64,000 bases of DNA from Thermoanaerobaculia bacterium (GCA_030431255.1 JAUIJL010000006.1:281850-345849), one strand, 5' to 3'. Numbered from the stretch's first letter, positions 1 through 28,938 are shown. Made by a program: numbers and translations. Notes: a model not told the origin generated them from the sequence alone.

Positions 1-1683
1 ACCGCAGCCGCGGGGCTCGGTGAGTTTCGACACTTCAACGGCATGACCGGCGCGCGCCTCTACTCGGAGATGATGGGCTCCGGGCTCGCCTGGATCGACT
101 ACGACCAGGACGGCGATCTCGACCTTTATGTGGTCCAAGGCACCATGGTCGACCCCAATCAAGACCCTGAGTCGGCGGTCTTCGCGCCCCCTGAGCCCCC
201 CTGGATCGACCGTCTCTATCGCAACGACCTCGAACCCGGCGGCGAGCCGATGTTTACCGACGTCACCGAAAGCTCGGGCATCGTGGCCGACGGTTACGGC
301 ATGGGGGTCGTGGTGGGGGATGTGGACAACGACGGCTTTCCGGATCTCTATGTGATGAACGACGGCGCCGATCAGCTGTGGCGCAATCGGGGCGACGGCA
401 CCTTTGAAGACTCGACCGAGAAGGCCGGCTTGGGCTCTCCGAAGTGGTCGGTTTCCGGCGCATTCTTCGACTATGACCGAGACGGCGACCTCGATCTCTT
501 CGTGGTCCACTACGTGGAATTCAGCGTGGCCAGAGCGAAGCCGTGCAAATCGCTCACCGGAATGCTCGACTACTGCGGCCCATTGAGCCATCCGGCCGTG
601 GCCGACCGCCTCTACCGCAATCGCGGCGACGGCACCTTTGAAGACGTGACCCGCGAGCTCGGAATCGTGGCGGAGGCCGCCGCCGGACTCGGCGTCGCGG
701 TGCTCGACTTCGACGACGACGGCCGCTTGGATCTGGCGGTCGCCAACGACGGCATGCCCAACCACCTCTGGCACAACCAGGTGTCGACGGGTCCCAACGG
801 GGCCGGCGGTTTCGTCGAGATGGCCGTGCCGGCCGGTGTCTCCGTGAACCAAGAGGGTCAAGCGGAGGCCGGCATGGGCATCGTCGCGGGTGATCCCGAC
901 GGTGACGGCGACGACGATCTATTGCTCACTCACCTGGAGCTGGAAACCCACACCTTCTATGCCAACGACGGTAGCGGCGGTTTCATCGACCGTAGCCGGT
1001 CCAGCGGCCTGGGTGGGCCGAGCTGGGATTCCACCGGTTTTGGTGTGGCTTTCCTCGACGCCGACATGGACGGCCTATTGGACGTGGTGGCGGTGGCCGG
1101 AGCGGTGAAGGTCATCCCCGAGCAACTCGAAGCCGATGAGCCGCACCCCCTCAAGATGCACAAACAGCTGTACAGAAACACCGGATCGGGTTTCGTGCTC
1201 GTAGATCCCGATGTCGCGGGTCCGGCCTTCCGTCGAAAATCCGTGGGCAGGGGACTGGCGGTCGGCGATGTGGACAACGATGGCGATTCCGATGTGGCGA
1301 TTTCCAACAATGCTGGAGCCGTGGAGCTGCTGATCAACCGCGCGGCCGAGCATCTCACGGCCGAAACCCCCGCTTCCCGATGGCTCGGCCTACGCCTTCT
1401 GGATGCCCACGGAAAGGATGCCCTAGGCGCCACCGTGGTGTCCCCGAGCAGGGTGCGCATCGGCACCGACGGCAGCTATGGCAGCTCTCGGGATCCACGT
1501 CGGGTCTTCGTCCTCAAAGGCGGCCCTGACGACACCGAGGCCCCGTCGGTCGAGATTCGCTGGGTCGACGGCACACGAGAGATTTTCCGGTCGTTGAAGA
1601 CCGGTCGATATACGACCCTTCTTCAAGGCCGAGGGCAAGCCGTGCGAGATCCCGATGAAACCACCCGAGGTGACGGAGCATGA
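1..1683 (+). CDS. CRTAC1-like FG-GAP/ASPIC-UnbV repeat protein, 5' partial
   Basis: The reading frame is already open at base 1 and gives AAAGLGEFRHFNG before the first internal ATG at 43. The same stretch (FHHFNGATG) occurs near the N-terminus of the paralogue at 12530-14359, so the gene starts left of the window. The protein is a chain of FG-GAP/VCBS-type repeats with calcium-loop motifs (DYDQDGDLDLY, DVDNDGFPDLY, DYDRDGDLDLF), expected to fold as an extracytoplasmic beta-propeller. The last ~90 residues match the ASPIC/UnbV C-terminal domain (WLGLRLLD through VEIRWVDG). Its stop overlaps the start of the following TPR lipoprotein gene in an ATGA, so the two are probably translationally coupled. 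The molecular function is unknown. Family assignment is firm; the ligand and role are not. Confidence 0.9.
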   Translation, partial: TAAAGLGEFRHFNGMTGARLYSEMMGSGLAWIDYDQDGDLDLYVVQGTMVDPNQDPESAVFAPPEPPWIDRLYRNDLEPGGEPMFTDVTESSGIVADGYGMGVVVGDVDNDGFPDLYVMNDGADQLWRNRGDGTFEDSTEKAGLGSPKWSVSGAFFDYDRDGDLDLFVVHYVEFSVARAKPCKSLTGMLDYCGPLSHPAVADRLYRNRGDGTFEDVTRELGIVAEAAAGLGVAVLDFDDDGRLDLAVANDGMPNHLWHNQVSTGPNGAGGFVEMAVPAGVSVNQEGQAEAGMGIVAGDPDGDGDDDLLLTHLELETHTFYANDGSGGFIDRSRSSGLGGPSWDSTGFGVAFLDADMDGLLDVVAVAGAVKVIPEQLEADEPHPLKMHKQLYRNTGSGFVLVDPDVAGPAFRRKSVGRGLAVGDVDNDGDSDVAISNNAGAVELLINRAAEHLTAETPASRWLGLRLLDAHGKDALGATVVSPSRVRIGTDGSYGSSRDPRRVFVLKGGPDDTEAPSVEIRWVDGTREIFRSLKTGRYTTLLQGRGQAVRDPDETTRGDGA

Positions 1684-3356
1684 TGGTTTCCGGCCGGCGC
1701 GGGATCGGGCTCGGGTTTCTGGTGCTGTCGCTCGTCGCTTGTGGCCAGGGCACGAGCCCAAAAGAGACAAGCCCGTCCGCGGGCTCCGATTCCGCTCCTG
1801 CGCCTGCGGCCGCCGAGGTGCCGACCGCCGGAAACGCCGGAAACAAGGTCCGGCTCAGCGGAGACGACCTTCCCAATCCGGACCTTTCTCAAATGGACCC
1901 CGCGGTTCGCCTTCAGCTTTCCGATGCCCGCGAGGTCGCTCTTGGACATCTCGAAGCCGGGGCGAAGGGACCGAACCTGGGAGCCGAGCTCGGCGACTTG
2001 GCCATGCTCTACCACGCTTACGATCTCCTGCCGGCTGCCGAGCAGGCTTACGGTCTGGCTCGACGCTTGGAGCCTCAGTCCGTTCAGTGGAGCTATTACG
2101 CTGGAGCGGTCGCCCAGCGATTGGGTCGCTTGGACGAAGCTATCGAGCTCTTCGAGAACGCTTGGCGGCTAGCCGGCTCGGCCTCAGACTCCGATCGAAG
2201 CGAGGAGATCCGCACTTCCATCGCCTGGCGCCTGGGGCGGGTGTTGCGACAGGCGAATCAAGGAGACCCGGCGAAAGCCTGGCTCGAACGGGCGGAGCCC
2301 AACGCTCAACAATGTCCCGCCGCTCTATTCGAGCTCGGTCAGCTCGCTCTATCCGAGGACCGCCCCGAAGAGGCGGTGAGATTTCTCGAGCGGGCCTTGG
2401 AGATACAAAGCGACGCATTGCAGGTGCTCTTTCCCCTGGGACAGGCATTGAGGCGTGCCGGACGGACAGATGAGGCCCAGGTTTACCTACGACGGAGCGC
2501 GGAGCGGGAGCAGAGCATCGGCGGGCGTGCCCGTTGTGTCGATCCCCTGGACGCTCGCCTCGGTGAGCGCACTACCGGCGCCGCGGCTCTCATCACCCGT
2601 GGCCAACACGCGCGATTCGCCGGCGATCTCGATGCTGCCATCGAAGAATTCAAACGAGCTGTAGAGCTGGCCCCTGACGACCCGATCGCCCATCAGGCCC
2701 TGGCGAGGGGCTGGGCGGAGAAGGGTGATCTAGCCGCGGCGGTCGAGCACTTCCGCCGGGCCTCGCAGCTGGATCCCGAATCACCGACCCTCGCCAACGA
2801 TCTGGCGATCCTCCTAGCCCAATCCGGACGAGCCTCGGAAGCAGCCGACGTGCTGCACGGGGTGCTGGCCCGTCATCCGACTTTTTTTCCGTCTTGGCTC
2901 GCTTTAGCCAACACCCAATTGGTCCAGGGGGCTTCCGCCGAGGCGTTGCGGAGCATCGATCAAGCTCTCTCCTTGGAGCCCGGCCATCCAAAAGCTCGGG
3001 GCAGACGCGCTCAAATATTGATGGCCTTGGGACGCCGCGAGGAAGCGGCGACGGAGATGGCACTCCTCCTCAAAGAGCATCCACCGGAGGATCCCAACGA
3101 GCGGATTCGCATGGCGGGCGCACTGGTCCAGCTGGGCGACACCCAGACCGCCGCTTCCTTATTGGCTGCGATGGTTGATGACGTCTCCATTCCGGCTCCG
3201 TCCAGGGCACGAGCCCATCTGGGCCTAGCCGGATTGGACCTTCAGCGGGGAAACGTCGACGGAGCTAGAAGCCGGTTGAGCTCAGCCCTTGAGCTGGACC
3301 CGAGTCTCCAGCCCGCGAGAGAAATGATGCGCCGGCTGTCCGACCCTGGTCGCTGA
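1680..3356 (+). CDS. TPR-repeat lipoprotein
   Basis: 558 residues. The N-terminus is a lipoprotein signal (hydrophobic LGFLVLSLVAC, lipobox LVAC with Cys21), followed by an Ala/Pro/Ser-rich linker and then many tetratricopeptide repeats to the end (for example the A..EF..A..L.P.D..AH..LA pattern). It should be a membrane-anchored protein-interaction scaffold outside the cytoplasm. It overlaps the upstream CRTAC1-like gene by ATGA. The start of the mature part (LPNPDLSQMD, then LAMLYHAYDLL and VQWSYYAGAV) resembles the TPR lipoprotein at 10402-12507 (LPDRDLDQFD, VRWPYLNGFL), which also follows a CRTAC1-like gene. The two operons are therefore paralogous. The specific partner is unknown. Confidence 0.88.
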   Translation: MMVSGRRGIGLGFLVLSLVACGQGTSPKETSPSAGSDSAPAPAAAEVPTAGNAGNKVRLSGDDLPNPDLSQMDPAVRLQLSDAREVALGHLEAGAKGPNLGAELGDLAMLYHAYDLLPAAEQAYGLARRLEPQSVQWSYYAGAVAQRLGRLDEAIELFENAWRLAGSASDSDRSEEIRTSIAWRLGRVLRQANQGDPAKAWLERAEPNAQQCPAALFELGQLALSEDRPEEAVRFLERALEIQSDALQVLFPLGQALRRAGRTDEAQVYLRRSAEREQSIGGRARCVDPLDARLGERTTGAAALITRGQHARFAGDLDAAIEEFKRAVELAPDDPIAHQALARGWAEKGDLAAAVEHFRRASQLDPESPTLANDLAILLAQSGRASEAADVLHGVLARHPTFFPSWLALANTQLVQGASAEALRSIDQALSLEPGHPKARGRRAQILMALGRREEAATEMALLLKEHPPEDPNERIRMAGALVQLGDTQTAASLLAAMVDDVSIPAPSRARAHLGLAGLDLQRGNVDGARSRLSSALELDPSLQPAREMMRRLSDPGR

Positions 3357-3729
3357 AGACCGGATTCCCTGGAGAATCCCGGTATAGACCCGATCGCTGG
3401 TCGCCAAAGGCTTCCAGTTCTACCGTCAAGACATTTTATTTATTCTCACTGTTATCTTGGGCCGGTATGCTGATGGTATTCGTCGGTTAATTTCTGTCGA
3501 TGGATAAGCTCGGTTTCGATGTGCTCACGTGTGTTATGCCTTGAAGAAGATGACTCTCGGTGGCCCGCACGCCACACGACCGGCTCCGAAGCGATGACTT
3601 GAGCTCTCCGGAAATTTCGAGCGTTTTCCGGAATTTGCTCTCGGGTCTACCCTGGTTCATTGAATCAGATGGCGATGGACCTGAACCGTTGGGCGGCCGT
3701 GTATAGGTTCCACCCCCGGCGAGACCTTG
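3357..3729. other. Intergenic region before the histidine kinase
   Basis: No convincing gene in 373 bases. It includes an AT-rich stretch at about 3430-3460 and an 8-bp inverted repeat, TCCGGAAA at 3607-3614 and TTTCCGGA at 3625-3632, with a 10-base loop and no following T-run. The inverted repeat is a possible operator or mRNA hairpin about 100 bases before the kinase start. No clear promoter was identified. Confidence 0.5.
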
Positions 3730-6480: not shown

Positions 6481-6486
6481 CTGTCT

Positions 6487-16110: not shown

Positions 16111-16668
16111 GATGGGTCTCCTGAAATTCGGTGCTCGCGGGCAGAGGGCCGCGACAAGCGGCCGAGAGTATATCGAAGGAGCTCAGCGTCGACCGGAGGA
16201 TGGGGCGACCGGCACATCAGAGCTTACGGAACGCTCGAGCCTACGGAAGCGCAGACGGGGCTATGTGGGCTCACAAGACGGATTGGCGGGACGAAGGACC
16301 GCCTAAAAGCCCAAAAAATCGATATGATCATCGGTTCAGGTGCACCGCGAACAACGGCTTATGGGGTCCCTACCGACCGCCTCCGGATTCAGTCACCTGT
16401 TGCGAGCTCAACGGATTGATTCAAAATTTTCGATTCAGGCTTATTCCGCAGCCGTTGAGTTTTCAAAGTGATCTCGATAACTACTGATTTAATTAAGCTT
16501 ATGGCGTAAACCGCCATCACCCGGCACCTTGGTCCGATTCTTGCTGTTACTAAGGTTGACGGGTTCTTATCACCGTTCATCTCGGCTCTGAGGAGCCGGA
16601 CCGAAACGGTGTTCAGCAGAAACCGCTTCCTTGAGGAGAAGAGGAAGCAATCACAGAGGAGTCTTCGA
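16111..16668. other. Divergent intergenic region, VWA operon / TonB receptor
   Basis: About 558 bases without a supportable gene. It must hold promoters for both the minus-strand VWA operon and the plus-strand receptor, and implies a long 5' leader for one of them. An AT-rich stretch occurs at about 16425-16500. A small hairpin (CGGCTC TGAG GAGCCG) lies about 80 bases before the receptor start. The SD AGAGGAG precedes ATG 16669. No confident -35/-10 pair was assigned. Confidence 0.45.
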
Positions 16669-19611
16669 ATGAGGACCAACCAAATCGCTCGGGTTTTGGG
16701 GATCGGGCTGGCGGCAGTGCTGCTGCTGGCGCCCACTCTCTTTGCCCAGCTACCGACCGGTACGGCTACCGGTCGCGTTATCGATGCCGACGGCGGCGGC
16801 CTTCCCGGCGTCACCGTAACGGCCAGCTCGGATGCCCTTCAGGGTAGCCGTGTTGCCGTCACCGGCACCAATGGCGACTTTAAGCTCGCTTTCCTGCCGC
16901 CCGGTACCTACAAGCTCACCTATGAGCTCGAAGGTTTCGCCACCGCTGTTCAAGAAGTGGTGATCTCCGGCTCGCAGACCCAAAACGTCAACGTCTCCAT
17001 GAAAGTGGCTGAGGTTGTTGAAGAAATCGTCGTCACCTCCGCTCTCGAGGTTATCTCCGAGGGAACGGGTGCCAAGACCACTTACGGTATCGACGAAATC
17101 GAGGATCTTCCGGTCGCCCGTAACATCCGTTCGGCTACCCTCCTGACCCCCGGCGTCGCCGCCACCGGTCCGAAGCAGTCGAGCAGCCGTTCGCCTGCCC
17201 TGGCCATCGCCGGCGCCATGTCGTTCGAGAGCCTCTACCTGGTCAACGGTGTGGTGGTCAACGAGAACATCCGTGGACAATCCTTGGATCTGTTCATTGA
17301 GGACGCGATCCAAGAGTTCACCACCATCACCAATGGTGCCTCGGCCGAGTACGGTCGTTTCACCGGTGGTGTGATCAACGTGCTGACCAAATCCGGTGGT
17401 AACGAGTTCAGCGGCTCGATCCGTCGCTCCTACACCCAGGACGATTGGACGGACCCGACCGAGTTCTTCGACGAAGAGCTCGACGACACCCTGAACGAGA
17501 CCGACGAGCTGACCTTGGGCGGCCCGTTCTGGAAGGACCACATCTGGTTCTTCGCCGCTTTCCGCGACATCGGTGAGAGCTCCTCCACCCGTACCACGGC
17601 TGCTCCCACGAGCATCTCCTACAACCGGGTGTCCACTCAGGAGCGTCAAGAGGGCAAGCTGACCCTCACGCCGCACCCGAGTCACTCTCTGGTCGCCAAC
17701 TACCTCGAGATCGAGCAGACCACGACCAACAGCTCGTTCGGTAACGTGCTCGACTTGGCCAGCCTCTCGGATCGTAACGATCCGCAAGAGCTGACCGCGG
17801 CTCACTACACCGGTATCTTCGGCTCCAACTTCTTCGTTGAAGCTCAGTACTCGGAGCGTGAGTTCTTGCTCGGCGACGGTAGCGGCTCTCAGTTCCGCGA
17901 CCTGATCGGCGGCACCTTGATCCGTCACTCCCTGGTCAACACCCGGTACCACACCGGTACCTTCTGCGGTGTTTGCCCGGCGGAGCTTCGCAACAACGAC
18001 AACACCCTGGCCAAGGCGTCTTACTTCTTGACCACGGATAGCGGCTCGCACGACATCGTCTTCGGTTACGATTCGTTCACCGACATTCGTCAATCCGACA
18101 ACCATCAATCCGGCTCCGGTTTCCAACTCTGGCACGGTCCGGATCCAATCATCCAGGGCAACGAGATCTTCCCCGTCGTGGGCAACGGTCAGTTCGACTG
18201 GGTGGTTTGGTTCCCGATTCTCGAAGGCTCGAAGGGCACGGATCTCGTGACCAACTCGGCCTATGTCAACGACACTTGGCAGATCAACGAGAAGATGAGC
18301 CTCAGCCTCGGCTTGCGCTACGACGAAAACGATGGTCGTGACGCCGAAGGCAAGCTGATTGCCGATGACAACCGCATCAGCCCTCGTTTGGGCCTGAACT
18401 ACGACCTCAAGGGCGACGGTGATTGGATCATCAACGCTACCGCTGGTCGTTACGTGGCTGCCATCAACAACGGCGCCGCCGACCAGACCTCGGCTGCCGG
18501 TACCCCGGCGACCTTCGTCTCCTTCTACGGCGGTCCGGAGATCAACACCAACGGTGCGACCCAGAACCAGGATCAAGCTCTGCAAACCGTCTTTGATTGG
18601 TGGTTCGCCAACGGCGGAACCGACGATCCGAGCGGTGACCTGAGCAACCTGCCGGGTCTCTTCTACGCCAACATTCCGGGCGCCACCGCGGTGATCGAAA
18701 ACACGTTGGCTTCGCCTTACGTGGACGAGCTCACCTTTGGTGTCAGCAAGCGACTGGGCAACAAAGGTATCGTGCGCGCGGATCTCGTATTCCGCGAGTT
18801 CGGTGATTTCTATGCCCAGGAAACCTCTTTGCGCACCGGTCAGGTCACGATTCCCTCCGGTACTTTCGATCGCACGGTCATTTACAACGAAAACGACTTG
18901 CTGAACCGTGAGTACATGGGTCTCTTGACCAACTTCCGTTATCGCGCTACCGATCGTCTGCGGATCAACGGTAACTACACGTTGTCCAAGTCGGAAGGTA
19001 ACTTCAACGGTGAAACCGCCGGCTCCGGCTCCATCAACGGTAACCCCCTGGCTTATCCGGAGTACCGCGAGGCCCGCTGGAACTTCCCCGAGGGTGACCT
19101 CAGCACCGACCAACGTCACAACCTGCGGTTGTGGGCGATCTACGACATCTTCAACACGGATCATCACTCGCTCAACACGAGTGTCTTGCTCAACTACGCT
19201 TCGGGCACGCCCTACAGTGGGGTAGCGAGCATCAATCCGACTCCTTTCGTCAACAACCCGGGTTATTTGACGCCCACCACTTCGGTCAACTACTTCGTAA
19301 CCGAACGTGGCGCGTTCAAAACCGACGACATCACCCGCGTGGATGTGTCGCTCAACTACTCGTTCAAGTGGAACCTCTGGAACCGGGACTTCGAAGTCTT
19401 CATCCAGCCGGAGATGCTGAACGTATTTGACGAACAGTCCTTCACCCGGGTCGACCAAACCGTCAACAATGAGGCAGCGTTCAATCCGTTCACCACCACC
19501 CCGGTGGAGGGCGTGAACTACACGTTCGACGACGACTTTGGCCAGCCTCTGACCCCTGAGGACATCACCTTGCCGCGGACCTACCGCTTCTCGGTCGGTT
19601 TCCGCTTCTGA
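16669..19611 (+). CDS. TonB-dependent receptor with carboxypeptidase-regulatory-like domain
   Basis: 980 residues from ATG 16669, chosen because AGAGGAG lies 7-8 bases upstream and a signal peptide starts there (cleavage LFA|Q near residue 26). An earlier in-frame start at 16609 would place 20 residues before the signal. Residues ~30-115 form a CarboxypepD_reg-like beta domain (GRVIDADGGGLPGVTVTA). A TonB plug follows (SAEYGRFTGGVINVLTKSGG), then a large outer-membrane barrel ending in the aromatic YRFSVGFRF. The protein should import an unknown ligand across the outer membrane using TonB energy. Codon use is much more biased than in neighbours (CGT, GGT, AAC, ACC, GAC), suggesting high expression. 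A strong terminator follows. Confidence 0.93.
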   Translation: MRTNQIARVLGIGLAAVLLLAPTLFAQLPTGTATGRVIDADGGGLPGVTVTASSDALQGSRVAVTGTNGDFKLAFLPPGTYKLTYELEGFATAVQEVVISGSQTQNVNVSMKVAEVVEEIVVTSALEVISEGTGAKTTYGIDEIEDLPVARNIRSATLLTPGVAATGPKQSSSRSPALAIAGAMSFESLYLVNGVVVNENIRGQSLDLFIEDAIQEFTTITNGASAEYGRFTGGVINVLTKSGGNEFSGSIRRSYTQDDWTDPTEFFDEELDDTLNETDELTLGGPFWKDHIWFFAAFRDIGESSSTRTTAAPTSISYNRVSTQERQEGKLTLTPHPSHSLVANYLEIEQTTTNSSFGNVLDLASLSDRNDPQELTAAHYTGIFGSNFFVEAQYSEREFLLGDGSGSQFRDLIGGTLIRHSLVNTRYHTGTFCGVCPAELRNNDNTLAKASYFLTTDSGSHDIVFGYDSFTDIRQSDNHQSGSGFQLWHGPDPIIQGNEIFPVVGNGQFDWVVWFPILEGSKGTDLVTNSAYVNDTWQINEKMSLSLGLRYDENDGRDAEGKLIADDNRISPRLGLNYDLKGDGDWIINATAGRYVAAINNGAADQTSAAGTPATFVSFYGGPEINTNGATQNQDQALQTVFDWWFANGGTDDPSGDLSNLPGLFYANIPGATAVIENTLASPYVDELTFGVSKRLGNKGIVRADLVFREFGDFYAQETSLRTGQVTIPSGTFDRTVIYNENDLLNREYMGLLTNFRYRATDRLRINGNYTLSKSEGNFNGETAGSGSINGNPLAYPEYREARWNFPEGDLSTDQRHNLRLWAIYDIFNTDHHSLNTSVLLNYASGTPYSGVASINPTPFVNNPGYLTPTTSVNYFVTERGAFKTDDITRVDVSLNYSFKWNLWNRDFEVFIQPEMLNVFDEQSFTRVDQTVNNEAAFNPFTTTPVEGVNYTFDDDFGQPLTPEDITLPRTYRFSVGFRF

Positions 19612-19644
19612 TACTGGTCAGAGAGAACCCTTCTTAGGAAGGTG

Positions 19645-19672: not shown

Positions 19673-19704
19673 GTTGCCCCGGGTTCTCTTCTCGACCCCG
19701 GTTC

Positions 19705-22098
19705 TTATTGAGCCAGGGCCCGCTGCAATCGGGCCAGCGCGGTTTTGAATCGTGGGTTCTCGGGCTCCAGCTCGAGCGCCGTTTGTAGACGCTCGAGGGA
19801 CTCCTCGAGACGCCCCCCGTTGCCGTAGATCAAGGCCAGGTTGAAGTGCGCCTCGGCGAAGCTCGGGGATATCTCGATGGCCTTCAAGAGCTCGCCCTCC
19901 GCTTCTTCCAGCCGATTCTGGCGGCCGAAAAGCACCCCGAGATCGTTGTGAATGCGGGCGACCACGGCGCGCGACGCCGCGTCGGAGGTGGCTTTGGGAG
20001 CGCCTTTGAGCTGATTGAGAGCCTGCTCATAGAGCGTTTGTGCTTCCGCAAAGCGTCCTTCTCGGCTCTCGGCTTGAGCCTTGTGGACGGTGATCAGAGC
20101 ATGCTGTCGACCGAGACCCGGATGGGTCCATCCGCCGGCCGACGCCTTCTCGAGCATCTGCTCGGCCGCCGCCGAATCACCCAGCTCCCGTAGGGCGATC
20201 GCCAGGTTGAAGCTCGCTTCCGGATAGTCGGGTTTCAGCTCGATCGCCTTCCGCAACGCGCTCGCGGAACGCTGCCACTGACCCACCTCCGCCAAGACGA
20301 CTCCGAGATTGAATTGGGATTCCGCAACGGCCGGCCCGAGCTCGACCGCCCGCTGATGGGCTTGCAGCGCATCTCCGATTCGTCCCATTTTTTGGTACAC
20401 GATCCCAAGATTTCGAAACACCTCGGGCTCGTCGTAAAGCTGGCTCGCGGCCCTTTCCAAGGGCTCGAGGGCTTCGTCGAATTTTCCCGCCCAACCCAAT
20501 ACCTTGGCCAAATTCAAATCCCGGCGCGCGTAATAGGCTTCGTCTAGGGTCGACAGATGCTCGACGATCAGAGCCTCGCGGGTGGTGTCCTCCAGCGGAC
20601 GAAGGCTTACGATACCGAGCCCTGAAAGGGTGCCGAGGACTTCCTGCGCGATCCACTGGTGAGCTTCGAGGGTGGGGTGGACGTGGTCCAACAACACTTC
20701 GTTGCCGGGAATACCGTGGCCGAGCCGGGCTTGTAGCCGCCGCTCTATGATTTCCGGCAGATCCACCCATGGGGTTGACGTCTCCGATGCCACTTCTCGG
20801 ATGATTCGATCGGTCGCTTCGAGCGCTCGCAGGGGACACACGTCGAGGTCTTTGGCACGAGCAAACGCCTCGGCAGCGAGCTTCTCTCGACCGGAAGCCA
20901 GCAGGGCTCGGCCAAGTCGATACGCGGACTCGGCAAATAGGGGATCCAATGCCGTTGCGGCCCGGAGCTCCTCGATGGCAGCTTCAGCGACTGAGTCAGT
21001 CGCGGCACTGTCGGCCGCGGCGCTGTCGGTCGTGGAGCTGTCGGTCGTGGCATCTGCTGCCTCGAGACCCTTGAGCAGCTCAACACCTCGTTCGAGATGG
21101 CGGTCATGTTGCTCGATCACGGCGTCCGTCAGGCCGTCTGAGCGTTGCGACTTGAAGGGTGAGAAGTCTTTGAGGTTCGAGATCGGCCGGACTAGAACGA
21201 CCGGAATGTCGTGGGCTTCGGCCAGCGCGATCATTTGCCGAAGGTTGTGCTCGAAGTGGGTGAGCACTGAGGCTTGGAGCTCGAGATCTCGCTCGAATAG
21301 GTCCAGGCCGTTCCATACATCGAGCTTGGCTTCGACCTCGCTCGCCAGGAGATCGCGACCAACCGCGGGTTCTCCGCTGTCGCCGGCTTTCCCGTTGTCG
21401 GCAGAGGGCTGCTGCGACGCGCCGGACACCGGGGTCTCTGGGGTCAAACCCAGCAGGCTCCGGGCAAGGTTCAAGAACCTGAGCCCATTGGACCAAACCC
21501 GTAGCTCGCGACGCCAGATCGGCTCGTGGATGATGTCGGAGTAGGTTCGTTCTTCGAGAAATTCGTTGTGGCCGGTGTAAATGACGAATACGTCCGGCTG
21601 ATATCGAACCAGCTCCTTCATCAGCACCGTGATCCGATAGCTGGCATAGGAGATACCCCCCGCGTTGATCACCTCAAGGGGCCGATCGCTCACCGCATTG
21701 CCGAATACCTCCAGCCATTTCGGAAAGGCGACCCGCCAATCGTAGGGCCGACCCGCAGTGGTGGAACCGCCGAGGGCAAAGATCCTCAAGGCCTCCGGAT
21801 CTTTATCCCCACCGAAGCTTTGATCGTTGAAGAATCCGAGTTTTTGTGGGCGTGTGCGAAAGACCTTTTTCCCGGATATTTGAACAGGCTCGAAGAGATC
21901 GTTGCCTTCCACAAACCCCACATAGGGATCCTCGACGGCATAGGGATCGCCGATTCCGAAGACCTCGAGAAGGCCTTCGACGACCACCAAACCCACCAAA
22001 AACAGCGCAAAACCGAAGAAGACCAGCAGGGCTTTTTGGGCCCTGCTGGTCTCGATCGAATCCCTTACGGCCGGGCTTCGGGAGTCCTGATCGATCAC
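19705..22098 (-). CDS. Membrane-anchored SGNH-hydrolase-like domain with C-terminal TPRs
   Basis: 797 residues. One N-terminal transmembrane segment (about 22-45) would leave the rest outside the cytoplasm. Residues ~100-480 look like an SGNH/GDSL-type hydrolase: ALGGSTTAG with candidate nucleophile Ser112, INAGGISYASYR, YTGHNEF (block III-like), and DHVHPTLEAH supplying the Asp/His pair. A TPR array follows from about 490 to the end. A low-complexity Thr/Asp/Ser/Ala segment (TDSSTTDSAAADSAATDS) interrupts the hydrolase part. The start overlaps the stop of the upstream TPR gene (ATGA). Such proteins may deacylate or acetyl-modify envelope glycans, but the substrate is unknown. Confidence 0.85.
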   Translation of the reverse strand: MIDQDSRSPAVRDSIETSRAQKALLVFFGFALFLVGLVVVEGLLEVFGIGDPYAVEDPYVGFVEGNDLFEPVQISGKKVFRTRPQKLGFFNDQSFGGDKDPEALRIFALGGSTTAGRPYDWRVAFPKWLEVFGNAVSDRPLEVINAGGISYASYRITVLMKELVRYQPDVFVIYTGHNEFLEERTYSDIIHEPIWRRELRVWSNGLRFLNLARSLLGLTPETPVSGASQQPSADNGKAGDSGEPAVGRDLLASEVEAKLDVWNGLDLFERDLELQASVLTHFEHNLRQMIALAEAHDIPVVLVRPISNLKDFSPFKSQRSDGLTDAVIEQHDRHLERGVELLKGLEAADATTDSSTTDSAAADSAATDSVAEAAIEELRAATALDPLFAESAYRLGRALLASGREKLAAEAFARAKDLDVCPLRALEATDRIIREVASETSTPWVDLPEIIERRLQARLGHGIPGNEVLLDHVHPTLEAHQWIAQEVLGTLSGLGIVSLRPLEDTTREALIVEHLSTLDEAYYARRDLNLAKVLGWAGKFDEALEPLERAASQLYDEPEVFRNLGIVYQKMGRIGDALQAHQRAVELGPAVAESQFNLGVVLAEVGQWQRSASALRKAIELKPDYPEASFNLAIALRELGDSAAAEQMLEKASAGGWTHPGLGRQHALITVHKAQAESREGRFAEAQTLYEQALNQLKGAPKATSDAASRAVVARIHNDLGVLFGRQNRLEEAEGELLKAIEISPSFAEAHFNLALIYGNGGRLEESLERLQTALELEPENPRFKTALARLQRALAQ

Positions 22099-23366
22099 AG
22101 AAAGCTCATCATTTCCTTGGCGGTCGCCGCATTCTCATGGTCGGGCATCAAGGCGATGAAGCGCTCGAAATGGGATTTAGCATCGGCGTTCTTGCCCATG
22201 TTGACGTAACAAAGACCCAGCAGGTAATGGGTCATTCCATGGTCGGGATCGATGTCTAAAATCTGCTTGAACGAGCTGACCGCGGAATCCATATCACCGC
22301 CGTTGAATTGCTCTTGGCCGCCCTTGAATAGACCCGAGATCATCGCCGTGGGATCCGCGTCGGCGACGGCTTGGAAGGCCTCGTCGGCCTTGGCCGTGTC
22401 TCCGAGGCCGCGGTAGGCGTCGAGCCTGACTTTCTTCATGGTCAGGTCCTCCGGATCGACCGCAATCACCTTCTCAGCGAATTCAGCGGCTTTTTGGAAT
22501 TCCTGGCTATCGAGATAGACCAATGCCAGGAGGCGTACCGCTTGGTTCAGCTCCGGGTCCAAGGAATAGGCTTTCTCCAGCCGCTCCCGAGCCCGTTCCA
22601 GGTCACCCATGCGCATGGCTTCGGCGCCCTCGTTATAGATCAAAGGTACAGCGTCTGCGCTGGATTCCAGCTGAGAGATCTTCTCGAAGACCTCGTCCGC
22701 AGCTTCCTGATCACCCAGACCGGAGAGGGCTTCGTAGAGCATCCTATAGGCGCGACCGTTTCCCGGCTCCTTCGCGATCACGAATTCCGCGCTCGCTTTA
22801 GCGTTCTGGAAATCCTTCTCATCCAAATAGATCGCCGCCAGGGCCGAATGGGCCTGATAGAGCTCGGGATCCATTTCATAGGCCTTGAGGAAACTGGCTT
22901 TGGCGGTCGCCAAGTCTTCAGCTTTGAGCGCGGTCACGCCTTCATTGAAGGTTTCCTGGGCGGGGGTCAGGGGAATCTCGCGGGTTCCACCTTCGCCGCT
23001 CGGCACCGACTTACGCGTATTGGTCTTATAAAGAGTGTAGGTCTGGTAGCTGACCGCGCCGACAGTCGGCTTGAGCGACGTCGAAGCTGGATCGTAACCC
23101 TCCAAAGAGAGGCTGAGTGCATAGGCCAGGCTGCTGTCACGGAAGACAAGAGTCGTCTTGCCTTTCTTGTTGGTGGTTCCTTCGATCACCAAACCCGTGT
23201 GTGGGTGGGTCGCCGAAATCTTGACGTCGGGTAACGGATTATCGGCCTCGTCTTTGACCGTGAAGCCGACCCGAGAGACCGACTGCGCGGATACAGAGGC
23301 GGCAAGCAAACAAAGAAGCGTTGTCACCGCGGTCGACACGAGGCCGATATGTAATCGTCTTTTCAT
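22095..23366 (-). CDS. Exported TPR protein with N-terminal carboxypeptidase-regulatory-like domain
   Basis: I place the start at ATG 23366, with SD AGGAGG 5-6 bases before it, giving 423 residues; a longer frame from 23510 lacks a signal sequence at its beginning. The signal peptide ends VSA|Q near residue 27. Residues ~30-115 form a beta-sandwich-like domain (FTVKDEADNPLPDVKISATHP) like that at the N-terminus of the TonB receptor. TPR units fill the remainder (AYEMDPELYQAHSALAAIYL). It is the first gene of a two-gene operon with the SGNH/TPR protein, overlapping it by ATGA. Probably a periplasmic scaffold; function unknown. Confidence 0.87.
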   Translation of the reverse strand: MKRRLHIGLVSTAVTTLLCLLAASVSAQSVSRVGFTVKDEADNPLPDVKISATHPHTGLVIEGTTNKKGKTTLVFRDSSLAYALSLSLEGYDPASTSLKPTVGAVSYQTYTLYKTNTRKSVPSGEGGTREIPLTPAQETFNEGVTALKAEDLATAKASFLKAYEMDPELYQAHSALAAIYLDEKDFQNAKASAEFVIAKEPGNGRAYRMLYEALSGLGDQEAADEVFEKISQLESSADAVPLIYNEGAEAMRMGDLERARERLEKAYSLDPELNQAVRLLALVYLDSQEFQKAAEFAEKVIAVDPEDLTMKKVRLDAYRGLGDTAKADEAFQAVADADPTAMISGLFKGGQEQFNGGDMDSAVSSFKQILDIDPDHGMTHYLLGLCYVNMGKNADAKSHFERFIALMPDHENAATAKEMMSFL

Positions 23367-23675
23367 GATTTCCTCCTGAAACGGGGATGGAGAACGGGGT
23401 GATTGCTCAAGCGGCTTACCGCTCGGCCAGGAGCTGATTGACCTGGATCCCCAAAGGATGCCCCGCTGGCCTATTATCCCATGGACGGCACGATGGTTCA
23501 GCACCTTCAATGACTCGGCTCTCCCTTGCGTCCGACGATAGGACGCATGTTGGTGACAGATCGCTACGAGCTGGGGTCGAGGAGCATGCTGTTGATACTA
23601 GGTATGCCTTAGGATATCGAGGCCGATCTTTTTTCTTCGGGACCTATTTTCGAATCCTGTCTGAAGGAGACATCC
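23367..23675. other. Divergent intergenic region, TPR operon / VWA-TPR-VWA operon
   Basis: 309 bases with no supportable gene. It should hold both promoters. TTGATA at about 23592, followed by an AT-rich GGATAT at about 23612, is a possible plus-strand promoter, but the hexamers are weak. AAGGAGA precedes ATG 23676 and AGGAGG precedes the minus-strand start. Confidence 0.4.
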
Positions 23676-25454
23676 ATGCAGAAGCTCGCGCTGATCCCGC
23701 TCACCCTCCTATATTTATACGGCTCGAGCCTGGCCGCCGATTCATCGGACAGCAATCTCTTCTTCGATACGGTCGATGTTCAAGTCGTCAACATCGAAGC
23801 GGTGGTGCTCGATAAAGAAGGCCAACCGGTGCTCGGCTTGGGGCCGGACGACTTTGAGCTATTCGAGAACGGCGAGCCGGTGGAGATCTCCAACTTCTTC
23901 GCGGTCGAAGGCTCCACCCGCACGGCGGATCCGGACCCGGGATCGACCCTAGCGCCGGCCAGGGAACCGGAAACCCAAAATCTCAATCTGGTGGTCGTGG
24001 TCGACAATGCCCATGTGGCGCCCCAGAATCGCAATCAGATCTTCGCCAATCTACGCGACTTCGTGGATCGCAGCCTCAAACCCGACGATCAAATCCTGAT
24101 CGTCAGTGTGGGTGACAGCCTGAAGCTGGAAACGGAATTCACCCGAGATCCGGAAACGGTCGGCCGAGTGCTCGACCGTCTGGAAAAGGAAACCGGACCC
24201 AGCACCCGCACCCATGCCGCCCTGCAGCAGCTGTTGCGTAACATCCAATCCGCTCGTTTGGTGGCTGCATCCCAGGGATTTCGCGACAACAGCGCCGAGC
24301 TGGAGCGGGTTCGGCTCGAAGCCACCGACTATGCGACCCAAATACGTGCTTTTTCCGAAGAGCGGATGAAGAGATCCAAAGCGACTCTGGAAGCCATGGC
24401 CCGATTCGTCAGCTCTTTGGCCGGTATGAAGGGCAGAAAAGCGCTGCTGTACATCAGCGACGGTATGTCGATGAACCCCGCCGATGCCCTGATGCAAGCC
24501 TGGCAGGACAAGTTCGTCAATTGGATGATCCAAAACGGCTTCAGCGACGATCAGCTCAATATGGCCACCATCAGCTCGGCGAATTACTCCTTAACCAAGG
24601 AGCTGGACCAATTCGTTCAACATGCCGCGGCCACGAAAGTCGCCATCTATCCGATTTCTCCGGGTAGCCGTCTCGCTCGATCCGTTGGCTCCGCCGAATC
24701 CCAAGGCAGCTTTGCCACCAACGGCTCCGGCAGCGCTTCGAGATTGGTCGGATCCTTGGAGCAATTCTCGTTGGATGAATCGCTGCTGCGCATGGCCGAC
24801 GAAACCGGCGGCACGGCCTTCACTCGAAGCTCCAACATCGAAGGGTTGTTGGAGCAAGTTCGCACCGATTTCTCGACTTTCTACTCTCTCGGCTACCAGC
24901 CGAATGTCATCAGCAACGAACGCCGAGACTTGGAAATCAAGGTCAAAAACGAGGATTGGACGGTTCGGTACGGCAAGAGCGTGCGGGAAAAGGATCCCCT
25001 GGACAACCTTCAAGACAGGATATTGTCGTCGCTTTTCTACGACCTGGGAGACAATCCCCTCCATATCGCCATGACCTCGATGAAGCAGGAGCCGACCAGC
25101 GCAGGCACCTTCCAAGTTTCGATCATGGTGCAAATACCGTTTGAGAAGATTCTCCTGCTCCCGGAGGAGAACCACCATTCCGGCCGCTTGACCCTTTTCG
25201 TGGTCGTTCGCGATGAAAACAACCAGAATCTCTCTCCGTTCCGGCGGGTGGAAATTCCCCTCGAGATTCCCAACGATCAAATTCTCCAAGTGATGGCCCA
25301 AAGCGCCGGTTATCCCCTGGAGCTGAATATGCAACCCGGGCCTAAGCGCATCGCCATCGGCATTCGGGATCGTCTCGCACAGCTGGATTCCACCACTCAT
25401 CTCGATCTCAATGTCGGCAGCGGAACCGATACGGCCCAAGTCAACAGCCCATGA
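23676..25454 (+). CDS. VWFA-related acidobacterial-type exported protein
   Basis: 592 residues with a signal peptide (LIPLTLLYLYGSSLA). Same architecture as the protein at 14356-16110: an N-terminal VEAVVLDKEGQPVLGLGPDDFELFENGEPV-type beta unit, a VWA-like fold, and a C-terminal beta domain (RLTLFVVVRDENN ... PKRIAIGIRD). The MIDAS DxSxS is replaced by VDNAHVAPQNRN, the same replacement as in its paralogue. AAGGAGA lies before the ATG. It is the first gene of a three-gene operon in which each junction is a 4-base ATGA overlap. Probably an envelope protein-interaction module; ligand unknown. Confidence 0.9.
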   Translation: MQKLALIPLTLLYLYGSSLAADSSDSNLFFDTVDVQVVNIEAVVLDKEGQPVLGLGPDDFELFENGEPVEISNFFAVEGSTRTADPDPGSTLAPAREPETQNLNLVVVVDNAHVAPQNRNQIFANLRDFVDRSLKPDDQILIVSVGDSLKLETEFTRDPETVGRVLDRLEKETGPSTRTHAALQQLLRNIQSARLVAASQGFRDNSAELERVRLEATDYATQIRAFSEERMKRSKATLEAMARFVSSLAGMKGRKALLYISDGMSMNPADALMQAWQDKFVNWMIQNGFSDDQLNMATISSANYSLTKELDQFVQHAAATKVAIYPISPGSRLARSVGSAESQGSFATNGSGSASRLVGSLEQFSLDESLLRMADETGGTAFTRSSNIEGLLEQVRTDFSTFYSLGYQPNVISNERRDLEIKVKNEDWTVRYGKSVREKDPLDNLQDRILSSLFYDLGDNPLHIAMTSMKQEPTSAGTFQVSIMVQIPFEKILLLPEENHHSGRLTLFVVVRDENNQNLSPFRRVEIPLEIPNDQILQVMAQSAGYPLELNMQPGPKRIAIGIRDRLAQLDSTTHLDLNVGSGTDTAQVNSP

Positions 25455-27673
25455 ATCGATATCTCGGCCTCGTCGTTTTTGTTCCGTTCCTTCTTTTTCT
25501 AAGCTCCGCGACTCCGGCCCAAGAGGTTCCCGATCCGTTTGGGCCGACCACCTTACAAGCTCGGGCCCTGAGGGGTCTGACCGGTGAAATCGCTACCTTG
25601 ATCCTAAAGGCCGACCCCGGTGGGGAATTGGCCATGGAAGCCTTGGCCGTACCCCTGCTACAAAGCGCGGAGGTCGGAGACGAGCCGGGCACCGAGAAAC
25701 AACGGGTGGCTGTCGTCGTGGAAATCGACGGCACCAGTTTCTTGGAGATGAATCAAAGCGATCTCACTCGGCTCGAGATCTATGTCTACGCCCTTCGCGA
25801 CCAAGGTTTCGAAATCGGTGACTATCGTGCGGAGGTGGTCGCTGTGGATGTCGCAAACCTCGGTGAGGTGGTGTGGCAAAGCGGTCTCAAATATTTCGGC
25901 GAGCTCGCGCTCGAGCCGGGCACCTATCGTCTGAGGGCATTGATCCGAAATTTTCAGAGCAAAGCCGCAGGTTTGCGCGAGATCCCTCTGGTTGTTCCAG
26001 CGGCATCGGACGGCCCACAGCTCTCGACACCCTTGCTGACCGATCCTGAATTCCGCGAGCCTTGGGTTCCCATTCGTCCGTGGAGCAAGGACTTAATCGC
26101 CGGCCTGGTCGACGAGCCCCTGGAGGGGTTGAAGACGCGGACCCGGAAACCTTATCCATTCAGCATGGGCGAGCAGGTCATCCGCCCCGCGGCCAGGAGA
26201 GTTCTGGTGCCGGGCCATGCTTCGACCGTCTACCTCCACGGACGGTTCCCGGCCTCAGACAACGGCTTCAGGGTTCAGCTCATGGATGCCTCTATCGAGC
26301 CGGCCAAGCTCCTGGGCCACCTGCCCTTGAGCTTCGTGGACCGAGTCGAGCAGGGGGATCGCGCTTTTGTGGAAGCGACTTTCATGCCACCCGAGGACCT
26401 GCCAGCGGGTCTCGTCGAGCTGAGGGTGGAGTATCCAATCGGCCACCAAGCAGCCAATCAAGGTGCGGCCGGCCAAGGTGCGGCCGGCCAAGGTGCGGCC
26501 GGATCGCGAGCCATGTCTCCTCCGGTAGCGGTCCACCTCATGGACTCGAGCGTCCGTGAGCAAAACCTCCTGTGGTCGGATCTCCGATGGCGGGGGACCG
26601 GAGAAGCACCGTCGGAACGCCCTGCCTCGGCTCGAGTGGAAAACACCCCGAGCCGCGAAAAAGGAGGGCGGAAGGTCGGCAAGCTGACCCGTCAGTACGA
26701 GGAAATCTTGGCCGGAGTCGACCAGCTGGGCACCACCACGACCATGAGCGACTTGTTGGACTTCGAAACCAGAACTCTCAACGAGGGCTCTCGCAAAGCG
26801 GCCGGGCTCCTGCAGACCGCTGAATACAAGCTCGCTGAATCGCTGTCCGAATCCGATCCCGAAAGCCTGGTTCCACTGATCCAGCTCCATCAAGACCTCT
26901 ATCTCGCTTATCGCGGTCGACGAATGTTCTCCCTCGGCACCCATAGCCGGGTGCTCATGGAACGGATCGCGGAGCTTTACGCTGAGAAGGGATCTGGGCA
27001 GGGCTCGAAGATCGTCGCCGCTCGGGCTTTGACCAGTCTTGCCGGTTATCTGCAGGCCGGTGGTTTGGCGTCCACCAGCCAGCGACTCTACCGTCGCGCC
27101 CTCGAGCTGGACCCCACGTCGAAAACAGCGATGTTGGCCTTGGCCTGTGGTTACGAACGGCTGGGTGCGTATGACCGGGCCAAGGAGACTCTGCAGCAGC
27201 TCACCTCTCAATACCCGAAGATGTCCGAGGCCTGGCTTCGATTGGCCATGAGCACCACGCGCTTGGGGCAGCGGGTCCAATCCCGGAAAATTTTGGAGCA
27301 GGTCGTCGAGTTGGACGGACCCCATTGGATTCGTTCTCTAGCTTACGAAGAGCTGGCCCGGATTCATCTCTTTTTGGACCAAACCGAATCCGCTCTGGCT
27401 CTCCTGGAGCAGGTCCAAGAGCCCAGCGAAGGAACCCTCTTCTTAATGGCATTTCTCTACGACCGCTCGGGTAAGCCCAATCGATCCCTAGAAATGCTCA
27501 ATCAGGTACAAGCCAAATCCGGTCGAGCACCCTCTCCACGCAAGAAATACGACGGCTGGCCGGAGCAGGCCCTCGCCGAGACTCGAAAACATCTCCTGGA
27601 AGCTGCCGGAATCCGCCTCTCCAGGCTGCAGGATGCCGTTGCGGGATCCCGGAAGCCCGGAGGTAAATCATGA
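25451..27673 (+). CDS. Exported protein with TPRs, middle gene of VWA operon
   Basis: 740 residues. The signal peptide is LGLVVFVPFLLFLSSATPAQ. The N-terminal ~380 residues contain beta-rich modules I cannot name (RVAVVVEIDGTSFLEMNQ; LEIYVYALRDQGFEIGDYRAEV) that may be VWFA-protein-associated. From about 490 to the end are TPR units (LYRRALELDPTSKTAMLALACGYERLG). A Gln-Gly-Ala-Ala-Gly triplet encoded by a 15-bp tandem repeat lies near residues 337-351. It overlaps both neighbours by ATGA, so all three proteins are probably made in fixed proportion and may form one complex. Function unknown. Confidence 0.82.
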   Translation: MNRYLGLVVFVPFLLFLSSATPAQEVPDPFGPTTLQARALRGLTGEIATLILKADPGGELAMEALAVPLLQSAEVGDEPGTEKQRVAVVVEIDGTSFLEMNQSDLTRLEIYVYALRDQGFEIGDYRAEVVAVDVANLGEVVWQSGLKYFGELALEPGTYRLRALIRNFQSKAAGLREIPLVVPAASDGPQLSTPLLTDPEFREPWVPIRPWSKDLIAGLVDEPLEGLKTRTRKPYPFSMGEQVIRPAARRVLVPGHASTVYLHGRFPASDNGFRVQLMDASIEPAKLLGHLPLSFVDRVEQGDRAFVEATFMPPEDLPAGLVELRVEYPIGHQAANQGAAGQGAAGQGAAGSRAMSPPVAVHLMDSSVREQNLLWSDLRWRGTGEAPSERPASARVENTPSREKGGRKVGKLTRQYEEILAGVDQLGTTTTMSDLLDFETRTLNEGSRKAAGLLQTAEYKLAESLSESDPESLVPLIQLHQDLYLAYRGRRMFSLGTHSRVLMERIAELYAEKGSGQGSKIVAARALTSLAGYLQAGGLASTSQRLYRRALELDPTSKTAMLALACGYERLGAYDRAKETLQQLTSQYPKMSEAWLRLAMSTTRLGQRVQSRKILEQVVELDGPHWIRSLAYEELARIHLFLDQTESALALLEQVQEPSEGTLFLMAFLYDRSGKPNRSLEMLNQVQAKSGRAPSPRKKYDGWPEQALAETRKHLLEAAGIRLSRLQDAVAGSRKPGGKS
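26459..26503 (+). repeat. 15-bp tandem repeat, three copies, in frame
   Basis: Three consecutive copies of CAAGGTGCGGCCGGC (the last ending in A) encode QGAAG three times. Copy-number change by slippage would add or remove five residues without breaking the frame of the TPR protein. Confidence 0.9.
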
Positions 27674-28938
27674 GCTCTCATCTTTCGTCCGGCGTTTACT
27701 CGCGGCGAGAGCCGGCCCGGGATCGATCCCGTCGGGTGGTTTCATTCAGGGTCGTCCCCATCTGGGCCGTGTGGATATCTCTTGCCCTCATTGTGTCGGC
27801 TCTCGACGTGTTTACCGTCAAGGTATTCGCCGAGCCCCCGACGGTGACCATCACCTCGCCCCCGGCCGGCCAGCCGGCGTTCGGAGAGGTCGAGCTGAGC
27901 GCGGACATCGTGGAGGGGGAGGCGACGATCGTTCGTTTTCTTTTCGATGGCCGGGTGGTGGGGGAGCTTGAAGCTCCTCCTTACCGAGCCACCGTCGACG
28001 CAGGCCAGGAGAACCGGCCTCATCGCTTCGAGGTTCAAGCCATCTCGGCGGACGGCGAGGTGGGCACGGCGCTGATGGTGACACCGGCCATTCGGATCGA
28101 CGACGAAATCGAGGCCGAGCTCCAGCAGCTCTATATCACCGTGACCCGCCAAGATCAGCGCATCCTCAATCTCGAGCAAGAGGACTTTCGGATCTATGAC
28201 GATCAATTCCGCCAGCAGATTGTGACGTTTGCCCGCGGGGATGTTCGGCTCACCGCCGCCTTGTTGATCGACTCGAGCACGAGCATGAAAGGGCGAAGGT
28301 TGCGCTTCGCCCTGCGCGGAGCGACCGCATTCCTAAACGGCTTGCGAGAAATCGACGATGCCAGTCTGTTGCTTTTCGCCGATCGGCTCCTTCATTCGAC
28401 ACCCTTCTCCAACGATGTCGGAATCTTGACCGAAGGGCTCAGCAAGGCCAATGCCGACGGCGGCACCTCGTTGAACGATCATTTGTATCTGGCACTGAAA
28501 AAGCTGGAGAGTCAGCAGGGCCGGCGGGTGGTGATCGTGCTCTCCGACGGCATCGACAGCCACAGCTCTTTGCGCATGGCCGACGTCCATTGGCTCGCCC
28601 GCCGCAGCCGCGCCCTCATCTATTGGATTCGAATCAATCCCGGCGGCGGCGATCCCACCAAACGGCTCTCGGCTTGGAAGAATCCTGAGACCTACAAAGA
28701 GGAGTATCGGCTGCTGACGCGAACCGTGGAGTCCAGCGGCGGCCGCATCGTGGATTTAGACAACCTCCAAGCGGCCGAGCAGGCCTTCCAAGGTATTTTG
28801 GACGAGCTTCGCGAGCAATACGTCATCGGCTACTACCCGTCGATTTCGAGAAACGACGGCAGCTGGCACGATGTGAAGGTCGAGGTGGACGGCGGAAATC
28901 TCAATATCCGAGCCCAAAAAGGGTACGTCGACTACTGA
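27670..28938 (+). CDS. VWFA protein with intact MIDAS and N-terminal Ig-like domain
   Basis: 422 residues. A signal anchor or uncleaved signal lies at about 27-53 (VVPIWAVWISLALIVSALDVF). An Ig-like beta domain follows at about 55-145 (VTITSPPAGQPAFGEVELSADIV and VRFLFDGRVVGELEAPPY). The next VWFA-related segment (LYITVTRQDQRILNLEQEDF) leads into a VWA domain with a complete MIDAS start, DSSTSMKG, then GGTSLNDHL and VLSDGIDSHSS. It therefore probably binds a divalent cation and a protein ligand, unlike the first VWA protein of the operon. The start overlaps the previous stop by ATGA. Third gene of the operon. Confidence 0.9.
   Translation: MSSHLSSGVYSRREPARDRSRRVVSFRVVPIWAVWISLALIVSALDVFTVKVFAEPPTVTITSPPAGQPAFGEVELSADIVEGEATIVRFLFDGRVVGELEAPPYRATVDAGQENRPHRFEVQAISADGEVGTALMVTPAIRIDDEIEAELQQLYITVTRQDQRILNLEQEDFRIYDDQFRQQIVTFARGDVRLTAALLIDSSTSMKGRRLRFALRGATAFLNGLREIDDASLLLFADRLLHSTPFSNDVGILTEGLSKANADGGTSLNDHLYLALKKLESQQGRRVVIVLSDGIDSHSSLRMADVHWLARRSRALIYWIRINPGGGDPTKRLSAWKNPETYKEEYRLLTRTVESSGGRIVDLDNLQAAEQAFQGILDELREQYVIGYYPSISRNDGSWHDVKVEVDGGNLNIRAQKGYVDY

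What the first reader, a model, noticed from the sequence alone, without database searches (positions are those of the whole stretch)
1..28938. Duplicated VWA / FG-GAP propeller / TPR gene sets around a TonB receptor: candidate undescribed envelope system
Three related sets occur: CRTAC1-like + TPR lipoprotein (1-3356, entering from the left), VWA + CRTAC1-like + TPR lipoprotein (16110-10402), and VWA + TPR + VWA (23676-28938). A TPR + SGNH/TPR pair and a highly biased TonB receptor sit between the last two. Members are joined by ATGA overlaps. VWA and calcium-loop FG-GAP propellers are the two folds that form the integrin head, here encoded side by side with TPR scaffolds. Inference: they form an extracytoplasmic multiprotein complex, possibly serving receptor uptake or surface attachment.
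Basis: partly seen in the sequence, partly recalled or inferred. Interest (0 to 1): 0.75.

Follow-up and report, generated by a model that had tools for sequence, protein, structure and literature searches.

The report
Conserved receptor-linked surface protein gene cluster
A group of genes for an outer-membrane uptake receptor, a propeller-shaped surface protein and its helical-repeat partner, and a three-gene set of "VWA" proteins sits together in several distantly related acidobacterial genomes, which suggests that they form one undescribed cell-surface machine, probably for nutrient capture.

Summary
The genes are real and mostly as described, but the proposed unit is wrong. There is no VWA gene left of base 1. 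The order there is TPR, sulfatase-fold/TPR, CRTAC1, TPR. The order VWA-CRTAC1-TPR is nearly private to this locus.

What is conserved is a neighbourhood of several units. (i) CRTAC1 followed by a TPR lipoprotein. (ii) A three-gene operon: VWA(long, MIDAS lost)-TPR protein-VWA(short, MIDAS intact). (iii) An Oar-type TonB receptor. (iv) A CarboxypepD_reg/TPR protein. The same set occurs in other families and in a different class of the phylum (complete genome G097). In six genomes 11 Oar receptors have both VWA and CRTAC1 within 10 kb (0.23 expected). The linked receptors concentrate in one fully supported clade. All nine full-length homologues of the middle gene with flanks available have VWA genes on both sides.

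Best reading: an outer-membrane uptake module that works like Bacteroidota SusCD/BtuBG systems, with CRTAC1 and TPR lipoproteins as capture proteins. Location and linkage are supported; physical complex, substrate and direction are inferred. SusD membership was tested and not met; the integrin analogy fails for the VWA beside CRTAC1. No paper on the set was found.

The parts
1..1683 (+). CRTAC1-family protein (FG-GAP/UnbV_ASPIC); its first possible start is 453 bp left of the window (L002:9397); upstream are a TPR gene and a sulfatase-fold/TPR gene, not a VWA
1680..3356 (+). TPR lipoprotein, 4-bp overlap with CRTAC1
   Evidence: N-terminus MMVSGRRGIGLGFLVLSLVAC
10402..12507 (-). TPR lipoprotein, partner of CRTAC1 12530 (22 bp gap)
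12530..14359 (-). CRTAC1-family protein: propeller with DxDxDG loops plus ASPIC/UnbV domain; probable lipoprotein; model matches murine CRTAC1
14356..16110 (-). long VWA protein (TIGR03436), signal peptide, MIDAS degenerate (DNLHI)
16609..19611 (+). Oar-type TonB-dependent receptor: CarboxypepD_reg, Plug, barrel; most biased codon usage in the window
22095..23366 (-). CarboxypepD_reg/TPR protein with signal peptide (ORF runs to 23510; likely start Met at 23366); recurs next to Oar/VWA in other genomes
19705..22098 (-). SGNH-hydrolase/TPR membrane-anchored protein; overlaps the previous gene but was not seen in the other module loci, so probably a local addition
23676..25454 (+). long VWA protein of the triplet, signal peptide, MIDAS degenerate (DNAHV)
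25451..27673 (+). middle protein of the triplet (P5 family): two beta-domains plus C-terminal TPR solenoid; first beta-domain related to the C-terminal domain of long VWA proteins
27670..28938 (+). short VWA protein of the triplet: Ig-like Big_7 domain plus VWA with intact MIDAS (DSSTS, GGT, SDG)

Best explanation
The region carries an outer-membrane capture-and-uptake module built on an Oar-type TonB-dependent receptor. CRTAC1 (a beta-propeller with calcium-type loops plus an ASPIC/UnbV domain) and the TPR protein encoded just after it are exported, mostly as lipoproteins, and probably sit at the outer membrane as the capture/lid part of the receptor, as SusD or the propeller BtuG do in Bacteroidota. 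The VWA(long)-TPR-VWA(short) operon makes a secreted three-protein accessory complex: the short VWA keeps a metal-dependent adhesion site, while the long VWA and the TPR protein share a beta-domain through which they may assemble. The CarboxypepD_reg/TPR protein shares its N-terminal domain type with the receptor and may couple the two on the periplasmic side. Shown: the domains, predicted export, the operon structure, and conserved linkage across families and one other class. Inferred: the physical complex, import rather than export, and that the ligand is a polymer or complex nutrient.
For: Linkage: in six genomes with full lists, 11 Oar receptors have both VWA and CRTAC1 within 10 kb against 0.23 expected. 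In lists not selected for proximity, 22 VWAs have a CRTAC1 within 15 kb against 3.5 expected. The same gene set appears in G001, G002, G003, G012, G020 and in the complete genome G097 of another class. The receptors so linked cluster on the tree: 8 of 11 in one 100/100 clade of 10, 1 of 500 shuffles as low. Operons: the VWA-P5-VWA triplet is found for 9 of 9 full-length P5 genes with both sides readable. CRTAC1 is followed on the same strand by TPR in 31 of 50 cases, 30 of them overlapping or within 30 bp. Biology: a receptor with Plug and CarboxypepD_reg. In Bacteroidota, CRTAC1 relatives follow SusC-SusD directly (L230) or SusD (L225). BtuG is a seven-bladed propeller lipoprotein lid on a TonB receptor (PMC10404256).
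Against: No interface was predicted: complexes could not be modelled here. Most VWA, CRTAC1 and Oar paralogues in these genomes are not in such clusters. VWA-CRTAC1 enrichment within 5 kb in the six genomes is not significant (7 against 4.5). The nearest relatives of VWA 14356 in other genomes lie in another context, beside a small membrane protein gene. Myxococcus Oar, the receptor type's namesake, is needed for secretion of a protease, not uptake (PMC6434023). The TPR lipoproteins do not match SusD families. No glycoside hydrolase or other substrate-defining enzyme is conserved in the cluster.
Confidence: 0.42

Rival explanations
1. The cluster is an export or surface-assembly module: the Oar receptor drives secretion of a protein, as Oar does for protease PopC in Myxococcus xanthus, and the CRTAC1, TPR and VWA proteins are cargo or surface structures (adhesion, matrix).
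For: Oar with the same N-terminal CarboxypepD_reg domain is required for PopC secretion (PMC6434023). VWA and propeller proteins are typical adhesive surface proteins (general knowledge); the short VWA keeps its MIDAS.
Against: The CRTAC1-SusC-SusD linkage in Bacteroidota points to uptake. No conserved cargo-like gene was found in the cluster.
Confidence: 0.22
2. Two or more independent functions share a neighbourhood: CRTAC1-TPR(-sulfatase-fold) units and VWA triplets are each functional operons, and their clustering with Oar receptors reflects shared regulation or island-like accumulation of large paralogous families rather than one machine.
For: Each unit occurs alone many times: CRTAC1-TPR without VWA in Planctomycetota, Poribacteria and others; triplets without Oar or CRTAC1 in G292, G000:C39, G010:C43, G022, G007; VWA arrays on C48. 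Order and strand between units vary.
Against: Linkage recurs in another class with the full set (L139) and is concentrated in one receptor clade; more distant Oar receptors show little VWA linkage (4 of 38 against 2.5 expected, though that ranking used a profile made of linked receptors).
Confidence: 0.28
3. Bat-like (MoxR-VWA-TPR) stress or assembly system: the VWA-TPR-VWA triplet resembles BatA-BatB-BatC.
For: VWA/TPR composition; weak BatA match for the short VWA (E 0.015).
Against: No MoxR ATPase near the triplet in the window. The VWAs carry signal peptides and belong to TIGR03436, far below the Bat model cut-off (14 against 380 bits).
Confidence: 0.04

Closest known systems
SusCD / RagAB utilisomes of Bacteroidota
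   Same: TonB receptor with N-terminal CarboxypepD_reg-type domain, a TPR-containing lipoprotein and further surface lipoproteins encoded together; CRTAC1 relatives even sit beside SusC-SusD in Bacteroidota.
   Different: The TPR lipoproteins here match no SusD family, the barrel matches OMP_b-brl_4 rather than PF00593, no glycan enzyme is conserved, and there is an added VWA-TPR-VWA operon and a second TPR protein.
BtuB-BtuG vitamin B12 transporter of Bacteroides (PMC10404256)
   Same: A propeller lipoprotein acts with a TonB receptor; a mechanistic precedent for CRTAC1 as a lid.
   Different: No sequence relation was tested; relation here is by analogy only.
Oar of Myxococcus xanthus (PMC6434023)
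   Same: CarboxypepD_reg plus Plug receptor architecture.
   Different: Required for secretion of PopC; whether that gene has CRTAC1 or VWA neighbours was not examined here.
CRTAC1 / ASPIC-UnbV family (murine CRTAC1 9etn)
   Same: Sequence profile match E 1e-32 and model match Z 40.7, rmsd 2.2 over 463 residues.
   Different: Bacterial, often lipoprotein, operonic with a TPR protein.
TIGR03436 acidobacterial VWA family
   Same: All three VWA proteins exceed the curated cut-off.
   Different: Two structural types with and without MIDAS, and the conserved triplet around a TPR protein, for which no description was found.
Integrin head (VWA/I-like domain plus alpha propeller)
   Same: Same two fold types encoded side by side.
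   Different: Propeller is CRTAC1, and the adjacent VWA lacks MIDAS serines; no evidence of contact.

Membership tests
CRTAC1 / ASPIC-UnbV family | FG-GAP/VCBS propeller repeats and UnbV_ASPIC domain | tested here: met
   12530-14359: PF13517 E 4e-46, PF07593 41.7 bits over cut-off 23.4; gene at 1-1683: 26.4 bits when read in the genome; best solved relative by sequence and by fold is murine CRTAC1
TIGR03436 acidobacterial VWA family | score above 81.25 bits | tested here: met
   209.8, 179.9 and 135.9 bits
Oar-type TonB-dependent transporter | N-terminal CarboxypepD_reg, Plug, outer-membrane barrel | tested here: met
   PF13620, PF07715, PF25183 all over cut-off
SusCD/RagAB system | SusD/RagB-family lipoprotein (PF07980 or PF14322) next to the receptor | tested here: not met
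   TPR lipoprotein 10402-12507: all 23 Pfam families at E 0.001 listed, none a SusD family; 1680-3356: best 25 of 29 listed, none a SusD family
SusCD/RagAB system | surface lid opening and closing over the receptor | not testable with these tools
   no complex modelling available
Integrin-like head | MIDAS (DxSxS...T...D) in the VWA domain paired with the propeller | tested here: not met
   14356-16110 has DNLHI; only the short VWA 27670 has DSSTS with GGT and SDG
Integrin-like head | direct contact of VWA and propeller | not testable with these tools
   no complex modelling available
Bat (MoxR-VWA-TPR) operon | adjacent MoxR AAA ATPase | tested here: not met
   Pfam scan of the genes from 1 to 36164 shows none

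The most novel reading that the evidence does not exclude
A SusD-independent, utilisome-like surface machine of Acidobacteriota, in which a CRTAC1 propeller and TPR lipoprotein cap an Oar-type TonB receptor and a secreted VWA-TPR-VWA complex with one intact metal-ion adhesion site works with it, giving these bacteria their own class of lipoprotein-assisted uptake and giving the CRTAC1/ASPIC-UnbV family a bacterial function.
Probability: 0.25. Interest if true: 0.75.

Novelty: new variant of a known kind. Interest (0 to 1): 0.52.

Why it matters
Acidobacteriota are abundant and poorly characterised, and their genomes carry tens of VWA and CRTAC1 paralogues for which no function was found in the literature searched. 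A defined, repeatedly conserved gene set gives a concrete handle: it predicts which receptor clade goes with which accessory proteins, and it links the CRTAC1/ASPIC-UnbV family to TonB-dependent transport in two phyla.

Tried and rejected
VWA left of base 1: absent. Conserved VWA-CRTAC1-TPR order: not found around 29 VWA relatives with 1.5 kb flanks; CRTAC1-TPR-VWA order once (L110). Integrin analogy: rejected for the adjacent VWA. Bat operon: no MoxR nearby. SusD membership of the TPR lipoproteins: no Pfam match. SGNH/TPR gene as a core part: its SGNH domain was found in no other locus then held. VWA in 80 CRTAC1 loci from many phyla: only two loci, so VWA linkage is not general to CRTAC1. 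Other conserved neighbours in the module loci: no further family recurred in more than four of 22 loci. Literature: no open-access paper found on this gene set; one paper lists TonB receptors, VWA and ASPIC/UnbV proteins as separate paralogue groups in Solibacter (PMC3174227). The beta-domains of the P5 protein were not searched alone; the list of structural matches is filled by its TPR part, so nothing is claimed on their fold. The high-score versus low-score Oar comparison is partly circular, because the profile was built from linked receptors; the tree is the fairer test.

Full report
CHECK OF THE OBSERVATION. The window is contig C53, 281850-345849, of a 10.19 Mb genome in 54 contigs. It is probably an acidobacterium: this is inferred from the VWA family TIGR03436 and from the named relatives of the CRTAC1 gene. 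The ORFs exist at the stated places and carry the stated domains. Five of the six within-set joints are 4-base overlaps; the joint between 12530 and 12507 is a 22-base gap. The TonB receptor has the strongest codon bias in the window. The prediction of a VWA gene left of base 1 fails: the genes there are a TPR protein and a sulfatase-fold/TPR protein, then CRTAC1.

PARALOGY. The genome holds 36 VWA genes above the TIGR03436 cut-off and 28 UnbV_ASPIC matches. The two CRTAC1 proteins of the window are 48% identical, and the long VWAs about 30%. These are old paralogues, not a fresh duplication.

IS THE ARRANGEMENT CONSERVED? The 29 nearest VWA relatives fetched from other genomes do not have CRTAC1 next door, and many lie in another context, beside a second VWA or a small membrane protein gene. 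At the scale of 10-15 kb the picture changes. From two ranked lists made without regard to position, 22 VWAs have a CRTAC1 within 15 kb (3.5 expected); at 3 kb it is 3 against 0.7. In six genomes with full lists, 54 Oar-type receptors, 142 VWAs and 135 CRTAC1 domains were placed: 11 receptors have both partners within 10 kb (0.23 expected); excluding the window's contig, receptor-VWA and receptor-CRTAC1 linkage remain (13 each, about 3.4 expected). The Poisson figures assume independence; the genomes are related and some had been chosen after seeing such loci, so they are guides only.

THE UNITS. (a) CRTAC1-TPR: the next gene is a same-strand TPR gene in 31 of 50 cases, 30 of them overlapping or within 30 bases. 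In an independent set of 80 CRTAC1 loci from named genomes, CRTAC1 has a TPR gene next to it or fused in 58 of 100 informative cases, against 24 of 514 downstream-TPR neighbours for other genes. This pair spans Acidobacteriota, Planctomycetota, Poribacteria, Gemmatimonadota and others. (b) The triplet VWA(long)-P5-VWA(short): every full-length P5 homologue with readable flanks, in nine genomes, has VWA genes on both sides. Of 11 triplets found in the phylum-wide search, six have Oar and/or CRTAC1 within about 10 kb (about one expected). (c) A CarboxypepD_reg/TPR protein of about 425 aa recurs beside Oar or VWA in G000:C29, G001, G012, G020 and G097.

SAME SET ELSEWHERE. G097 is a complete genome from another class: CRTAC1, TPR, TPR, then VWAshort, P5, VWAlong, CarboxypepD_reg/TPR on the other strand, then VWA and the Oar receptor (L139 with L300). 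G012: VWA, TPR, CRTAC1, Oar, VWA, P5, VWA (L087, L135). G001: TPR, CRTAC1, Oar, TPR, VWA, P5, VWA, VWA, CarboxypepD_reg/TPR (L096). G002, G003, G004 and G020 are similar. Order and strand between units vary; order inside units does not. On a tree of 41 Oar receptors from the six genomes, 8 of 11 linked receptors fall in one clade of 10 with full support, and only 1 of 500 label shuffles is as clustered.

ANATOMY. CRTAC1 12530: propeller with DxDxDG loops and ASPIC/UnbV domain, model pLDDT 83, closest to murine CRTAC1 by sequence (E 1e-32) and fold (Z 40.7, rmsd 2.2, 463 aligned). VWAs come in two types. The short ones carry DxSxS, GGT and SDG, hence an intact MIDAS, after an Ig-like domain. 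The long ones keep the aspartate but have N-x-H or similar in place of SxS and add a C-terminal beta-domain. P5 (25451) is two beta-domains and a TPR solenoid. Its first beta-domain is related to the C-terminal domain of the long VWA (hhalign E 5e-5), and in other genomes matching beta-domains are fused to VWA in one ORF. A simple N-terminal scan finds lipobox-like sites in half of the CRTAC1 genes and in 19 of the 31 TPR partners, and signal peptides in most of the rest and in the VWAs. This is a crude predictor and start codons were not curated.

MECHANISM. The receptor fixes the location (outer membrane). CRTAC1 and the TPR lipoprotein are exported and encoded near it. In Bacteroidota, CRTAC1 relatives directly follow SusC and SusD (L230) or SusD (L225), so the association of CRTAC1 with TonB-dependent uptake is found in two phyla. 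A propeller lipoprotein acting as lid on a TonB receptor is established for BtuG (PMC10404256), and utilisomes show that such lipoproteins form stable complexes with their receptor (PMC7618045). I therefore think lipoprotein-assisted uptake is the most likely function (0.42). Export in the manner of Myxococcus Oar (PMC6434023) and mere neighbourhood are the main rivals. The role of the VWA triplet is the weakest step: only the operon, the two VWA types and the shared beta-domain are shown.

NOVELTY. All families are known. No paper on the combination was found in the open-access library; most subscription papers are not in it. SusD membership is not met, so this is filed as a new variant of lipoprotein-assisted TonB-dependent systems, not as a SusCD system.

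Noticed in passing
L002:7199-9430 (just left of the window): The sulfatase-fold/TPR protein has TLPSH where sulfatases have C/S-x-P-x-R, so it is probably not a classical sulfatase; similar genes recur near CRTAC1-TPR or Oar genes in several genomes.
   Followed up: partly
G000:C48:130825-137662 (L105): Tandem array of four VWA genes of the TIGR03436 family; their context has neither CRTAC1 nor Oar.
   Followed up: no
L101, L109, L111, L117, L119: Close relatives of VWA 14356 in other contexts are followed by a conserved 145-160 aa protein with two likely membrane helices (holin-like), a second conserved VWA neighbourhood.
   Followed up: partly
L243, L250, L256, L259: Single ORFs of about 745 aa fuse a VWA domain to the P5-type beta-domains, often in tandem in one genus (g7).
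   Followed up: partly
L230 4745-16799 and L225 1068-13168: In Bacteroidota MAGs, SusC-SusD or SusD is followed by two or three CRTAC1-like proteins of about 1100 aa.
   Followed up: partly
G000:C29:138000-152000 (L141) and G001:C82 (L296): A second, apparently orthologous locus in two species of the genus: VWA, CarboxypepD_reg/TPR, VWA, Oar, TPR, CRTAC1, without the P5 gene.
   Followed up: partly
window 3727-6480 and 6487-9798: A PAS-rich hybrid histidine kinase and a SWIM/SNF2 helicase separate the first CRTAC1-TPR pair from the rest; they look like bystanders.
   Followed up: no
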